Notes under the pieces: model-generated
Databases searched by the model: none
The model's input: only the letters and a program-made list of their open reading frames with translations
Told to the model about the DNA's origin: nothing
Position numbers and translations under genes: made by a program
Assembly: GCF_000427905.1 (NCBI RefSeq)
Contig: NZ_ATYX01000006.1
Span: 248,001 to 312,000 of the forward strand
Reading direction: 5' to 3'
Source: Thermocrispum agreste DSM 44070
GTDB lineage: Bacteria; Actinomycetota; Actinomycetes; Mycobacteriales; Pseudonocardiaceae
Length of the DNA stretch: 64,000 nucleotides
Part shown: positions 41,192 to 44,880 of the stretch, one piece after another
How positions within the stretch are numbered: position 1 is the stretch's first letter
Layout of the letters: each line of letters begins with the position of its first letter

Positions 41192-41236
41192 CCTGGCGGA
41201 CCGGTCGCTGTCGGCCGGGCATGGCAGCATGCGCGC

Positions 41237-42463
41237 ATGCGGTCGATCTCCGACGCCGTCGCACGGCGGATGGCTCTCGCTGCCCAGGGTTTCACCGACC
41301 CTCGTCCGGCCGGGCAGGCAGGCAGGCGGCACCTGCTCCGCACACTGCGGCGTACCAAGCTGTTGCAGCTGGATTCGGTCAATGTGGCGGTGCGGGCGCA
41401 CTACATGCCGCTGTTCTCCCGGCTCGGGCCGTACCCGGCCGAGCTGGTGGACACCGCCGCTTGGTCGCACAGCGCGCGGAAGCCGCGTTTGCTGGCCGAG
41501 TACTGGGCGCACGAGGCGTGCCTGCTGCCGCTGGCCGATTGGCCGTTGCTGCGCTGGCGGATGCGCCACTACGAATCGCTGCGCGGCCGGTACTGGAAAG
41601 TGGCGCATGCCCAGCCGGGGCTGATCTCCGACGTGCTCGCCGTGGTCAAGGAACAGGGGCCGATCAGCGCAGGCGGGGTGGAGAAGGCGCTCGGTCTGCA
41701 GAGTGCGGCCAAGGGCGGCTGGTGGAACCGGTCGGCCGCCAAGGTCGCCTGCGAATACCTGTTCGCGGTCGGCGAGCTGACCACCGGCACCCGCAGGGGA
41801 TTCGAGCGGCACTACGACCTGCCGGAGCGGGTGCTGCCGCCGGAGGTGCTGAACGCGCCGGAGATCCCGCACACCGACGCGATCCGTGAGTTGATCGCCC
41901 GTGCCGCCGAGGCGCTGGGCGTGGCCACCGAGACCGATCTACGGGACTACTACCGAATCAAGCCCGCGCCTGCCCGGCGGGCGATCGGGGAGCTGGTGGA
42001 GGACGGGCGGCTCGAGCCCGTCCGGGTGCGCGGCTGGCGGCAGACCGCGTACCTGCATCCGGAGGCGCGAGCGCCCAGAAAGGTCACCGGCCGGGCGCTG
42101 CTGTGCCCGTTCGACCCGCTGATCTGGGAGCGTTCCCGGACCCACCGGCTGTTCGGCTTCCACTACCGCATCGAGATCTACGTGCCTGCGCCCAAGCGCG
42201 TCTACGGCTACTACGTGTTCCCGTTCCTGCTCGACGGCGAACTGGTCGCCAGGGTGGACCTGAAGGCGGACCGGGCCGCGGGCGTGCTGCGGGCCCAGGG
42301 TGTCTTCGCCGAGCCGGGAGTGCCGCAGGCCAGGGTCGCCCACGAGCTGGCCGGGGAGCTGTGGTCCATGGCCGGATGGCTCGGCCTGGCAGGCGTCGTG
42401 GTCGGCGAGCGCGGCGACCTGGCGGCTGCCCTGCGCGCGGCCGTGGCCGCGAGCGTGGAATAG
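41237..42463 (+). CDS. ycaQ: YcaQ-type DNA glycosylase (HTH_42 winged-helix family)
   Basis: A 408-residue relative of E. coli YcaQ, which unhooks alkylated bases and interstrand crosslinks. Similarity runs along the length: SDAVARRMALAAQGF, LLQLDSVNVAVRAHYMPLFS, LLAEYWAHEACLLP, LRDYYRIK, LCPFDPLIWERSRTHRLFGF and YTPAPKR-like VPAPKRVYGYYVFP. The Q-L-D at residues 44-46 fits the QxD catalytic motif of the YcaQ branch rather than the QxQ of AlkZ. A bacterium able to meet or make DNA-alkylating natural products would benefit, but no such cluster is in the window. Start ATG at 41237. Confidence 0.88.
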   Translation: MRSISDAVARRMALAAQGFTDPRPAGQAGRRHLLRTLRRTKLLQLDSVNVAVRAHYMPLFSRLGPYPAELVDTAAWSHSARKPRLLAEYWAHEACLLPLADWPLLRWRMRHYESLRGRYWKVAHAQPGLISDVLAVVKEQGPISAGGVEKALGLQSAAKGGWWNRSAAKVACEYLFAVGELTTGTRRGFERHYDLPERVLPPEVLNAPEIPHTDAIRELIARAAEALGVATETDLRDYYRIKPAPARRAIGELVEDGRLEPVRVRGWRQTAYLHPEARAPRKVTGRALLCPFDPLIWERSRTHRLFGFHYRIEIYVPAPKRVYGYYVFPFLLDGELVARVDLKADRAAGVLRAQGVFAEPGVPQARVAHELAGELWSMAGWLGLAGVVVGERGDLAAALRAAVAASVE

Positions 42464-42557: not shown

Positions 42558-43427
42558 CTACTTGCGCGGCCCGGCCACCGTCACCGAGCCGTGCCCGCTG
42601 CGTGCGTTGATCCGCAACGGGGCGGTCTGCTCGGGTGGGTCGTGCTGCACGTCCAGCTCGGAGCTCACCCGGCCGCTGCCGGAGGACAGGTGGATCTCGG
42701 CCAGCACTCCGTCGGCGAGCTCCAGGCGGACGTCACCCGAGCCGGTCTTCGCGGTGAGCGCGCCCGCCGCTGCGCCGGAGACGGTGAGGTCGCCGCTTCC
42801 GCTGCGCAGGGTGAGTTTCCCGGACGCATCGTCGAGTTCGCCCACGTGAACCGAACCGGAGCCGGTGACGATCGACGAGGTGCCGCTCACGGCGCCCACG
42901 GTCGCCGTTCCCGACGCGGTGCGGATGTTCGCCGACCCGCTGACCCGGTCCACCGAGATGTCCCCCGAGGAGGTGGTGACCACCGCGCTCGCGGCGGTCC
43001 CGGTCACCGTGACCGAGGCCGACGAGGTACGGATGTCCAGCTCGGATCCGGCTGGTGCGCGCACCGTCACGGCCAGCGGCTGGTGCCGCATGGGCAGCGT
43101 CTTCGGCGACTGCACGATCAGCCGGTCGCCCACCAGCTCCACCCTGGTCTGGTCCACCGCGGCGGTCGCGGTGCCCATCACGTCGGCGGTGATGTGCTCA
43201 CCGAACTGTTCGTTCACCCAGGTCAGTGCGCTGGCCATCATCTGCGCCCACGGCATGCCCTCCTCCGGGGCGTGCCGCACGTCGACCTGCACCCCGTCCT
43301 CGCCGCCGGTGCTGCCGCTGTCGGCAAGTTCCACGTCGACGCTGCCTGCGGAGAGCTGTACTTCGATCCGGACCGGCCCTTCGGTGGTGAAGGCGGTCGT
43401 CCGGATGGCGTCTTCCGGAGCGGTCAT
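42558..43427 (-). CDS. DUF4097 beta-strand repeat protein
   Basis: A 289-residue cytoplasmic-looking protein with no signal peptide. From residue 130 on it repeats short strand units of the type SGS-x-VxV (SSGDISVDRVSG, ASGTATVGAVSG, GSGSVHVGEL, GSGDLTVSG, GSGDVRLEL), the DUF4097 pattern, which should fold as a beta solenoid. The N-terminal 110 residues are different (RIEVQLSAGSVDVEL) and contain a helical stretch with WAQMMASALTWV. Function is unknown. The ATG overlaps the stop of the ribbon-helix-helix gene (ATGA), so the two form a coupled pair. Confidence 0.82.
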   Translation of the reverse strand: MTAPEDAIRTTAFTTEGPVRIEVQLSAGSVDVELADSGSTGGEDGVQVDVRHAPEEGMPWAQMMASALTWVNEQFGEHITADVMGTATAAVDQTRVELVGDRLIVQSPKTLPMRHQPLAVTVRAPAGSELDIRTSSASVTVTGTAASAVVTTSSGDISVDRVSGSANIRTASGTATVGAVSGTSSIVTGSGSVHVGELDDASGKLTLRSGSGDLTVSGAAAGALTAKTGSGDVRLELADGVLAEIHLSSGSGRVSSELDVQHDPPEQTAPLRINARSGHGSVTVAGPRK

Positions 43428-43948
43428 GACTGCACCCACCCGTGCATCTCGTTGCCTTCGTCGTCGCGATCGTCTCGTCGCTGGCCGCCCCACGGGCCGG
43501 TCCAGCCGTGCTTGCCCTGCAGTGCGCCCTGCAGGGCCTGCTGGACGAACGTGTTGAGCGAGACACCTTGCTCGGCCGCCGCCTGCTCGGCCTTGCTCTT
43601 CAGCTCCTCGAACAGGCGCAACGTCATCCGGGTGATGTTCTCGCTGCCGCCGGACGGCGGCGGTGGCGGCGGTGGCGCCTGCTGAGCGTCGTCCTGCTCG
43701 CGGGATGCCCTGGTGTCCACGACCACCCGGACGTCCCGCCCGGCGAGACGCACGTCGACCACGGTGTCGTCCAGCTGGGCGGTGATCTCGTCGGCCAGGT
43801 CGGACAACGCGTTCATGATGGCGAGCCGGGCCGCGGGCTCGAGCGCCGCCGACAGGACCGCGGCGGCCCGTTTCGTGTTCTCGTCGCCGGCGGAGGCCGC
43901 GGCATTGAGGTCCTCGCGCAGGCTGGTCAAGTACGGTGACAGATCCAT
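43424..43948 (-). CDS. ribbon-helix-helix (HicB/CopG-like) regulator
   Basis: A 174-residue protein. The N-terminal 110 residues are helical and then beta (DLSPYLTSLREDLNAAASAG, VDVRLAGRDVRVVV), ending in a Pro-rich linker of eight prolines. The C-terminal segment NITRMTLRLFEELKSKAEQAAAEQGVSLNTFVQQAL, in parts, is a ribbon-helix-helix fold: a short strand for DNA contact and two helices, as in HicB/Arc/CopG. Such proteins with a downstream DUF4097 gene recur in actinobacteria and are often labelled antitoxins, although no HicA toxin is present. Repeated TGACATCA elements lie 22-61 bases upstream, a likely autoregulatory operator. Start ATG at 43948. Confidence 0.8.
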   Translation of the reverse strand: MDLSPYLTSLREDLNAAASAGDENTKRAAAVLSAALEPAARLAIMNALSDLADEITAQLDDTVVDVRLAGRDVRVVVDTRASREQDDAQQAPPPPPPPSGGSENITRMTLRLFEELKSKAEQAAAEQGVSLNTFVQQALQGALQGKHGWTGPWGGQRRDDRDDEGNEMHGWVQS

Positions 43949-43969
43949 GGTGTCATGGTGCCACCATTC

Positions 43970-44009
43970 TGACATCACTTCAACGTCAGATGACATCATG
44001 GGTGATGTC
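43970..44009. promoter_or_regulatory. repeated operator TGACATCA upstream of the RHH gene
   Basis: TGACATCA occurs at 43970-43977 and 43991-43998, 21 bases apart (two helical turns). The second copy also forms a perfect inverted repeat: GACATCA (43992-43998), TGGG, TGATGTC (44003-44009). Three half-sites on a regular spacing upstream of an RHH gene suggest cooperative autoregulation; the same region lies 113 bases upstream of thyX. Confidence 0.6.
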
Positions 44010-44121: not shown

Positions 44122-44880
44122 GTGCAGGTGGCAGAGACGGTCTCGCCGAAGGTTCAGCTCATCGCCAAGACGGAGTTCTTCCCGCCGGAGGACGTCCCGT
44201 GGTCGACCGACGCCGACGGGGGAGAGGCGCTGGCCGAGTTCGCCGGCCGCGCCTGCTACCAGTCGTGGCACAAGCCGAACCCGAAGACGGCCACCAACGC
44301 CGGTTACCTCCGGCACATCATCGAGGTCGGTCACCTGTCGGTGCTCGAGCACGGCACGGTCAGCTTCTACATCACCGGCATCTCCCGGTCGCTGACGCAC
44401 GAGCTGATCCGGCACCGGCACTTCTCCTACTCGCAGCTGTCCCAGCGGTACGTCCCGGAGCGGGACGCGGCGTTCGTCGAGCCGGACGTCATCGCCAACG
44501 ACCCCGAGCTGCACGAGAAGTTCCTCAAGGCCGTGCAGGCCAGCCAGGATGCCTACAACGAGCTGCTGGCCGGCCTGGAGGACAAGTTCGCCGACGCGCC
44601 CAGCAAGACGCTGCGGCGCAAGCAGGCCAGGCAGGCGGCACGCGCGGTGCTGCCGAACGCGACCGAGACGCGCATCGTGGTGACCGGCAACTACCGGGCG
44701 TGGCGGCACTTCATCGCCATGCGCGCCACCGAGCACGCCGACGTCGAGATCCGGGCGCTGGCCGTGGAGTGCCTGCGCCAGCTGCAGAAGGCCGCGCCCA
44801 ACGTGTTCGCCGACTTCACCATCTCCACGCTGCCCGACGGCACCGAGGTGGCCTCCAGCCCGCTGGTCACCGAGGGCTGA
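44122..44880 (+). CDS. thyX: flavin-dependent thymidylate synthase ThyX
   Basis: ThyX methylates dUMP with FAD and methylene-tetrahydrofolate. The 252 residues include the ThyX motif [13 protein letters not shown] at 97-109, and the FAD/nucleotide region [27 protein letters not shown], in parts, near residue 190. The thyX-dapA-rnj order is the mycobacterial one, here with two genes inserted. The start GTG at 44122 is one of two nearby GTGs (44122 and 44128). A TAGGCT hexamer at about 44079 may serve as -10. Confidence 0.95.

What the first reader, a model, noticed from the sequence alone, without database searches (positions are those of the whole stretch)
42558..43948. RHH/DUF4097 pair: a two-gene module of unknown function shaped like a toxin-antitoxin locus
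A HicB-like ribbon-helix-helix protein with an extra N-terminal domain is coupled by ATGA to a cytoplasmic beta-solenoid DUF4097 protein. The order and autoregulatory operator resemble a toxin-antitoxin pair, but the partner is not HicA. I know of no described role for the pair, and it seems to recur in actinobacteria.
Basis: partly seen in the sequence, partly recalled or inferred. Interest (0 to 1): 0.6.

Follow-up and report, generated by a model that had tools for sequence, protein, structure and literature searches.

The report
Self-regulating repressor with beta-helix partner
Two side-by-side bacterial genes that look like a toxin-antitoxin pair are more likely a self-controlling DNA-binding repressor and a dedicated beta-helix partner protein that it probably holds by a short tail, a testable idea that applies to many actinobacteria.

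Summary
In detail: a ribbon-helix-helix (RHH) gene (43424-43948, -) overlaps a DUF4097/Toastrack beta-helix gene (42558-43427, -) by ATGA. The pair is not HicAB, and nothing I found makes it a toxin-antitoxin system.

New here: (1) The RHH protein has a conserved N-domain, the RHH, and an extreme C-terminal tail (phi-x-G-[W/Y/F]). Of 248 distinct relatives held, 207 have DUF4097 next door and 205 of these carry the tail or a variant; 41 lack a separate DUF4097 gene and none carries it. The tree needs four changes between the states, three without a fusion. (2) The promoter is buried in phased 8-bp sites TGRYRYCA at -7, -18 and -29/-30, kept in orphans too: local autorepression, probably of a leaderless mRNA. 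(3) In many other actinobacteria the pair heads a DrrA-type ABC-exporter operon; here it stands alone beside thyX.

Best reading: an autorepressor whose activity is set by a Toastrack partner docked on its tail. AlphaFold did not predict the docking, and no signal is known. The RHH-Toastrack-ABC association is in print (one sentence, PMC11237479); my searches found nothing on tail, operator or orphans.

The parts
43424..43948 (-). RHH repressor gene (174 aa), start ATG at 43948
   Evidence: ORF and translation; Pfam HicB PF05534 on residues 108-139 only; orthologues
42558..43427 (-). DUF4097/Toastrack beta-helix gene (289 aa)
   Evidence: translation; PF13349 E 3.5e-11; a relative (in the L090 chain) folds as a beta-helix with pLDDT near 98 over most of it, Foldseek to Toastrack structures
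43424..43427 (-). ATGA overlap of RHH stop and DUF4097 start
   Evidence: sequence; the gap is exactly -4 in 25 of 202 paired loci with a start assigned, so it occurs but is not the rule
43709..43948 (-). codons of the RHH protein's N-domain (residues 1-80), alpha-alpha-beta-beta
   Evidence: alignable in all 19 rows of A1; AF2 model; no PDB match at E<=0.001
43520..43642 (-). codons of the RHH DNA-binding domain (residues 103-143)
   Evidence: PF05534, alignment A1
43427..43453 (-). codons of the conserved C-terminal tail NEMHGWVQS (residues 166-174)
   Evidence: tail or variant in 205 of 207 relatives paired with DUF4097, 0 of 41 unpaired; kept when the DUF4097 start is 30-269 nt away, 82 of 82
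43948..43955 (-). operator site 1, TGACACCA, overlaps the start codon (-7 to +1)
   Evidence: exact site at this position in 152 of 167 paired and 32 of 37 orphan leaders
43959..43966 (-). operator site 2, TGGTGGCA (one mismatch to TGRYRYCA), -18 to -11
   Evidence: exact in 129 of 167 paired and 32 of 37 orphan leaders; window
43970..43977 (-). operator site 3, TGATGTCA, -29 to -22
   Evidence: position -29 or -30 exact in 108 of 167 paired leaders, -30 in 24 of 37 orphans
43991..43998 (-). operator site 4, TGATGTCA, -50 to -43
   Evidence: sequence; a site at -51 is exact in 43 of 167 paired leaders
43978..43983 (-). putative -35 element TTGAAG
   Evidence: TTGN at -35 in 123 of 167 paired and 31 of 37 orphan leaders; the generic promoter scan found no consensus promoter here
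43955..43960 (-). putative -10 element CACCAT (weak; commonest in the family CATAGT)
   Evidence: hexamer at -12..-7 is CATAGT in 81 of 167 paired leaders; the position implies a leaderless mRNA (inference)
44122..44880 (+). divergent neighbour thyX (context, not part of the module)
   Evidence: PF02511; divergent thyX upstream in 77 of 80 named Pseudonocardiaceae loci
41210..42463 (+). convergent neighbour AlkZ-like DNA glycosylase (context)
   Evidence: PF06224; in 51 of 80 named loci

Best explanation
The pair is an autorepressed regulatory module, not a poison-antidote pair. Shown by sequence: the RHH protein sits behind a promoter region whose -35 to start-codon stretch is filled with phased copies of one 8-bp site, and its C-terminus ends in a short tail that, in the loci held, is kept only where a DUF4097 gene follows. 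Inferred: RHH dimers tile the sites and shut off the (leaderless) promoter; the Toastrack protein docks on the tail and thereby tunes DNA binding (as anti-repressor or co-repressor) in response to a signal, most likely drug or envelope stress, because in many other actinobacteria the same two genes head a DrrA-type ABC-exporter operon. In the window's family the exporter genes are absent and the pair controls itself and perhaps few or no other genes.
For: Tail and partner: 205 of 207 paired RHH proteins carry the tail (193 phi-x-G-[WFY]; 12 a variant phi-x-[GE]-x; 2 neither), 0 of 41 unpaired. Six genomes hold both a tail-less orphan and a tailed, paired copy. Tree of core columns without linker and tail: 4 changes of state, 3 without the fusion L269; one origin of the orphans rejected in the 99-row tree, p-AU 0.0009. 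The tail is selected as protein: the aromatic residue varies W/Y/F (178 TGG, 9 TAT/TAC, 4 TTC) and the tail is kept in 82 of 82 loci whose earliest possible DUF4097 start is 30-269 nt away, so it is not a ribosome-binding site. Operator; the double site TGRYRYCA-N3-TGRYRYCA has 14 places in 8 of 10 genomes searched, at the start of an RHH gene in 7 of these genomes; reversed-pattern control 3 places. Exporter: ABC ATPase downstream in 28 of 34 paired loci of a related family (code f8), 6 of 20 class loci, 0 of 36 orphans of f8, and RHH-DUF4097-ATPase-permease in the 4 opened of 41 plasmid records. A natural in-frame RHH-half-Toastrack fusion exists (L269). Published proposal for Toastrack as a hub of signalling complexes: PMC11237479.
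Against: AlphaFold gave no docking: the tail had pLDDT about 41 alone and 38-41 in a single chain with DUF4097 made by reading through the stop. Tail and DUF4097 start are neighbours in DNA, so one deletion can remove both (L209 looks like that); independent events are only 3-4, too few for a sign test (2 pairs, p 0.5 at best). In distant lineages 14 paired proteins lack the aromatic residue. The orphans suggest that the RHH does not need the partner to regulate itself. No ligand, signal or regulated gene besides itself was found; the 0 of 80 exporters in the window's family means that the exporter argument is borrowed from relatives.
Confidence: 0.55

Rival explanations
1. Type II-like toxin-antitoxin pair: DUF4097 is a new toxin and the RHH protein is its antitoxin, neutralising it with the C-terminal tail and autoregulating the operon.
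For: Layout: RHH, flexible linker, conserved C-terminal peptide, overlapping partner gene, tandem operator. Loss of DUF4097 with RHH kept is the safe order for toxin loss.
Against: The orphan RHH is retained in a 36-row clade, joined by L285 and L286, with the operator (exact site at -7 in 32 of 37 orphan leaders), which is unusual for an antitoxin; DUF4097 has a Toastrack fold; syntenic beside thyX in 77 of 80, no phage record matched; the pair is embedded in exporter operons; other DUF4097 domains occur in genomes without a nearby RHH of this family, for example G000:C13. In Listeria an overproduced PadR operon with a DUF4097 gene gave a growth defect that deletion of the other gene, lmo0600, restored (PMC6624303, passage read).
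Confidence: 0.1
2. The RHH protein is only an autorepressor that sets the dose of the DUF4097 protein; the two never touch. The tail serves something else, for example as a C-terminal degradation signal.
For: AF2 shows no docking; the operator is largely confined to its own promoter.
Against: The tail is absent wherever DUF4097 is absent (0 of 41), which a general degradation signal would not predict; variable linker and conserved end fit a docking peptide.
Confidence: 0.25
3. The tail is a by-product of DNA: its codons hold the ribosome-binding site or coupling signal of DUF4097 and so vanish with it.
For: The earliest possible DUF4097 start lies within 25 nt after the RHH stop, or overlaps it, in 113 of 202 loci.
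Against: 82 of 82 loci with a gap of 30-269 nt keep the tail; TGG is replaced by TAC, TAT or TTC, which keeps the aromatic residue but not the G-rich letters.
Confidence: 0.03
4. The RHH protein mainly controls the divergent gene thyX, and DUF4097 is a passenger.
For: thyX is divergent in 77 of 80 Pseudonocardiaceae loci and next to 27 of 36 f8 orphans, with only about 2.5 kb or less held on each side.
Against: The operator lies over the RHH promoter; thyX synteny can be inertia; 33 of 34 paired f8 copies have no thyX beside them; DUF4097 is present in 80 of 80 of the Pseudonocardiaceae loci.
Confidence: 0.07

Closest known systems
RHH-Toastrack-ABC operons of Actinobacteria (Ravi et al. 2024, mSystems, PMC11237479; section 27 and passages read)
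   Same: An RHH factor next to a Toastrack (DUF4097) gene; with an ABC ATPase and permease in the exporter-linked relatives.
   Different: The window's version has no ABC genes (0 of 80 in its family). The main text as far as I read it does not describe the tail, the operator or the orphans; its supplement was not read.
HicAB toxin-antitoxin (HicB, PF05534; NCBI label 'toxin-antitoxin system HicB family antitoxin', seen on the relative in NZ_CP108416)
   Same: RHH sequence resemblance; gene pair with autoregulation.
   Different: No HicA next door; the N-domain is alpha2-beta2 and not matched by a HicB model; the partner is a 289-aa beta-helix.
LiaG / lia and PSP systems (NCBIfam LiaG NF049997)
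   Same: DUF4097 domain; weak LiaG match 34.8 bits.
   Different: Far under the LiaG cut-off of 285 bits; no hydrophobic anchor; neighbours scanned (AlkZ-like, ThyX, ACT) are not PspA, PspC, LiaF or two-component genes.
RHH antitoxins and Arc/MetJ repressors (VapB26, Mnt, ParG)
   Same: Weak profile similarity over the RHH (E 0.13-0.88, not significant); tandem operator sites.
   Different: Extra N-domain; partner of another fold than the known toxins (recalled).

Membership tests
HicAB toxin-antitoxin | HicA toxin gene adjacent | tested here: not met
   Neighbours are DUF4097, AlkZ-like and ThyX by Pfam; the gaps left (about 95 and 173 bases) are too short for a HicA gene
HicAB toxin-antitoxin | HicB N-terminal domain (RNase H-like, recalled) plus DNA-binding domain | tested here: not met
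   Only RHH residues 108-139 match PF05534; N-domain alpha-alpha-beta-beta, no PDB match at E<=0.001
Ribbon-helix-helix (Arc/MetJ) DNA-binding protein | RHH motif | tested here: met
   PF05534 over cut-off; R107, R111, S130, N132 invariant in 19 of 19. The AF2 monomer drew the N-terminal ribbon as helix, so the fold itself was not shown
Ribbon-helix-helix (Arc/MetJ) DNA-binding protein | Binds phased repeated sites near its own promoter | tested here: inconclusive
   Sites present and phased; binding itself not tested
Toastrack (DUF4097, PF13349) | Sequence match over curated cut-off and beta-helix fold | tested here: met
   43.4 bits against 22.9; a relative's model matches 3pet, 4qrk, 4opw
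Type II toxin-antitoxin system | Partner is toxic and neutralised by the RHH protein | not testable with these tools
   needs an expression assay
Type II toxin-antitoxin system | Partner belongs to a known toxin or defence family | tested here: not met
   PADLOC: 0 families for either protein; Pfam names no toxin for the DUF4097 protein
RHH-Toastrack-ABC operon (Ravi et al. 2024) | ABC ATPase and permease downstream | tested here: not met
   Next gene downstream is the convergent AlkZ-like gene; 0 of 80 in the family
LiaG | NCBIfam NF049997 cut-off 285 bits | tested here: not met
   34.8 bits

The most novel reading that the evidence does not exclude
A new two-protein one-operon sensor: a repressor that is switched by a soluble Toastrack beta-helix clamped on its short C-terminal peptide, so that Toastrack domains act as general adaptor receptors for transcription factors, with the RHH, GntR and PadR/HAAS versions being parallel inventions. 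The orphan clade would be the same repressor that has cut loose from its sensor.
Probability: 0.3. Interest if true: 0.75.

Novelty: new variant of a known kind. Interest (0 to 1): 0.5.

Why it matters
The pair is widespread in actinobacteria (207 distinct paired RHH proteins held here), and at least one copy is labelled an antitoxin, which sends readers the wrong way. The tail gives a nine-residue handle that makes the physical link between a transcription factor and a Toastrack domain directly testable, and the orphans are natural controls. If the partner senses drugs or envelope stress, it would explain how some DrrA-type exporters are switched on.

Tried and rejected
Docking by AlphaFold: one job for the RHH alone and one for a read-through RHH-DUF4097 chain; the tail stayed disordered in both, so this support failed. 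Limits: one RHH copy only, shallow alignment of one family, tail tethered to the DUF4097 N-terminus.

Wider regulon: the double site was sought in 10 Pseudonocardiaceae genomes. Of 14 places, 7 are at the thyX-type RHH starts, 1 just before and 1 inside the paralogous RHH gene of G009, and 5 elsewhere (G003, G004, G002 twice, G010), near the level of the reversed-pattern control (3 places), so I claim no other target. The window's genome and its genus mate G001 had none; the window's array has a mismatch.

Fold of the N-domain: Foldseek in PDB gave nothing (131 matches at E<=10, none at E<=0.001).

Mobile elements: no phage record matched; 41 plasmid records, 35 of them Streptomyces.

My first DUF4097 profile was contaminated with RHH rows because the protein file held both proteins; it was rebuilt, and the counts (80 of 80, 19 of 20) were repeated with the clean one. 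The tail rule was sharpened after seeing data: searches used other patterns (one search missed 4 real tails), misread three orphan ends (GWNN, GWNN, GWQNY) as tails, one search counted 14 variant tails and one misread tail (L283) as 'no'; one search is the final rule. Loci in f8 were partly chosen because the profile match stopped before the tail, and many of L248-L271 likewise, so 207 against 41 is not a prevalence. From one search's list I did not fetch G586, G564 and G570.

Literature searches: DUF4097 (13 papers), toastrack with Psp (2), 'beta strand repeat-containing' with HicB and Streptomyces (0), HicB family antitoxin with ABC transporter and Streptomyces (1), DrrA with DUF4097 (1), ribbon-helix-helix with Streptomyces, ABC transporter and autoregul (4), toastrack (4). 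I read passages of three papers (PMC11237479, PMC9866976, PMC6624303) and section 27 of the first; these do not describe the tail or the operator; the other papers were seen as listings only.

Full report
OBSERVATION. The window carries, on the minus strand, an RHH gene (43424-43948, 174 aa) and a DUF4097 gene (42558-43427, 289 aa) that overlap by ATGA. Pfam gives DUF4097/Toastrack for the second and HicB PF05534 for residues 108-139 of the first. PADLOC has nothing for either. Neighbours are a divergent thyX and a convergent AlkZ-like gene. The best named relative is Thermocrispum municipale at 81% identity, so the host is probably close to that genus.

THE RHH PROTEIN HAS THREE PARTS. An alignment of 19 relatives shows an N-domain (1-80), the RHH (about 103-143) and, after a variable G/R-rich linker, a conserved extreme C-terminus: in the window NEMHGWVQS. 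AlphaFold gives the N-domain as helix-helix-strand-strand with moderate confidence and leaves the tail disordered. Foldseek finds no solved relative of the model at E<=0.001.

THE TAIL GOES WITH DUF4097. A search of 251 genomes of a related family, code f8, found matches in 145 and revealed many copies whose match stops before the tail. Of the 71 loci then examined (L152 and L160-L229), 34 had tail and DUF4097, 37 had neither, none was mixed. Over all loci held at the end, 248 distinct RHH proteins, 207 had DUF4097 downstream and 41 did not; 193 of the 207 end in phi-x-G-[WFY]-x(1-4), 12 in a variant with another residue in place of the aromatic, 2 in neither; none of the 41 matches either pattern. 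Sampling was not even: some loci were chosen because the match was short. Three orphans end in GW followed by two or three residues, without the hydrophobic residue two before G. Six genomes hold both kinds side by side: a tail-less orphan and a tailed copy with DUF4097 (L201/L229, L214/L220, L213/L225, L286/L203, L216/L180, L194/L185).

INDEPENDENCE. On a tree of core columns (99 rows) orphans need two changes and one clade is rejected (p-AU 0.0009); with more lineages (149 rows) four changes, three without the fusion. One orphan clade of 36 rows is sister to the window's group; 27 of the 36 orphans among L160-L229 (35 of that clade and L209) are beside thyX within the short stretches held. 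The single orphan L209 has its RHH reading on into an unrelated C-terminus, with no trace of DUF4097 in 5.5 kb, which looks like one deletion removing tail and partner. So co-loss is partly physical linkage. L287 is a third case, on a long branch whose place is unsure. L269 is an in-frame fusion of the RHH to the second half of a DUF4097 domain (profile 132-289), without the tail; its nearest relative L264 has the two genes apart.

PROTEIN, NOT DNA. The tail codons often overlap the place of the DUF4097 ribosome-binding site, so I tested that rival: in 82 of 82 loci whose earliest possible DUF4097 start lies 30-269 nt after the RHH stop the tail is kept, and its tryptophan is replaced only by tyrosine or phenylalanine in the aromatic class.

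OPERATOR. Aligned at the start codon, 204 leaders show TGRYRYCA exactly at -7 (152 of 167 paired, 32 of 37 orphan), -18 (129 and 32) and -30 or -29 (108 paired; 24 orphans at -30), mean 2.84 and 3.14 exact sites against 0.014 in shuffled leaders. TTGN sits at -35 in 123 of 167 and 31 of 37; CATAGT at -12 to -7 in 81 of 167. The distance implies a leaderless mRNA (inference). The window has sites at -50, -29 and -7 exactly and -18 with one mismatch, spaced 11 bp between the last three. A generic sigma-70 scan found no promoter there. The double site is rare in the genomes of the family: 14 places in 10 genomes, 9 of them at or in RHH genes, so regulation looks local.

CONTEXT. In the window's family no ABC gene follows (0 of 80; 77 have 3 kb or more downstream), thyX is divergent in 77 of 80, AlkZ convergent in 51 of 80. 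In f8, 28 of 34 paired copies are followed by a relative of a DrrA-type ABC ATPase (only 1.5-2.5 kb downstream held, so a lower bound) and 0 of 36 orphans; 6 of 20 class loci and 4 of 4 opened plasmid loci (of 41 records) have ATPase and permease. 'DrrA-type' rests on the label of the lunaemycin gene and on recall; the annotation of the plasmid genes says ATP-binding cassette protein. In a phylum sample 51 of 376 genomes matched. Of 40 further loci fetched (36 from that list, plus G046, also in it, and G116, G193 and G014 from earlier searches), 36 had a separate DUF4097 gene; the rest are L269 (fusion), L285, L286 and L287.

PARTNER. The DUF4097 part of the L090 read-through chain folds as a beta-helix with pLDDT near 98 over most of its length and matches 3pet, 4qrk, 3lyc and 4opw; 4qrk and 4opw are the published Toastrack examples. 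In that chain the RHH tail stays at pLDDT about 40: no docking predicted. None of 202 DUF4097 proteins has a hydrophobic segment in its first 60 residues.

COMPARISON WITH PRINT. Ravi et al. 2024 (PMC11237479; passages and section 27 read) define Toastrack, propose it as a platform for sub-membrane signalling complexes and mention an actinobacterial operon with an RHH factor in place of GntR beside Toastrack and ABC genes. The lunaemycin cluster (PMC9866976; table passages read) lists Lun1 (177 aa, unknown) beside Lun2 (DUF4097), and another DUF4097 beside a DrrA-type ATPase and a permease; that Lun1 is this RHH protein is a guess from size and position. I found no paper on the tail, the operator or the orphans in the searches.

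JUDGEMENT. The toxin-antitoxin picture fits the layout but not the distribution: the RHH lives on without its partner, with the same operator. The best reading is an autorepressor with a Toastrack partner held by a C-terminal peptide. Shown: gene pair, operator sites, tail-partner association. Inferred: repression, docking, signal. It is a variant of a published association with new, testable anatomy.

Noticed in passing
L269 (G602:C127:18500-23900): In-frame fusion of this RHH protein to the second half of a DUF4097 domain, tail and first half missing; its nearest relative (L264) has the two genes apart.
   Followed up: partly
L209 (G262:C1:557100-562600): RHH gene that lost tail and DUF4097 and reads on into an unrelated C-terminus, followed by what looks (by recall, no search) like a flavoprotein dehydrogenase gene.
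   Followed up: partly
L287 (G014:C3:465300-470800): Orphan RHH with the same N-domain and a long glycine/arginine-rich C-terminal extension in place of linker and tail.
   Followed up: no
L256, L257, L259-L268, L270, L271: Distant actinobacterial lineages have C-terminal ends without the aromatic residue (RRMTGSIET, RVQETFEL, RHRTTIEL), yet DUF4097 is next door: the tail's chemistry changes by lineage.
   Followed up: partly
leaders of L003-L229: Operator letters differ between groups (TGACGTCA, TGGTGTCA, TGGTGCCA), which may track residues of the RHH strand; not tested.
   Followed up: no
G000:C13:109012-109308 (L001): A second DUF4097 domain in the window's genome, with no RHH gene of this family in the 3.3 kb held around it.
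   Followed up: partly
L201/L229, L214/L220, L213/L225, L286/L203, L216/L180, L194/L185: Six f8 genomes hold both an orphan copy and a paired copy, so an orphan could act in trans on the paired operon.
   Followed up: partly
L244-L247: On linear Streptomyces plasmids the four-gene operon lies among genes of secondary-metabolism type (AMP-binding protein, methyltransferase, ketosynthase, P450) by their annotation.
   Followed up: no
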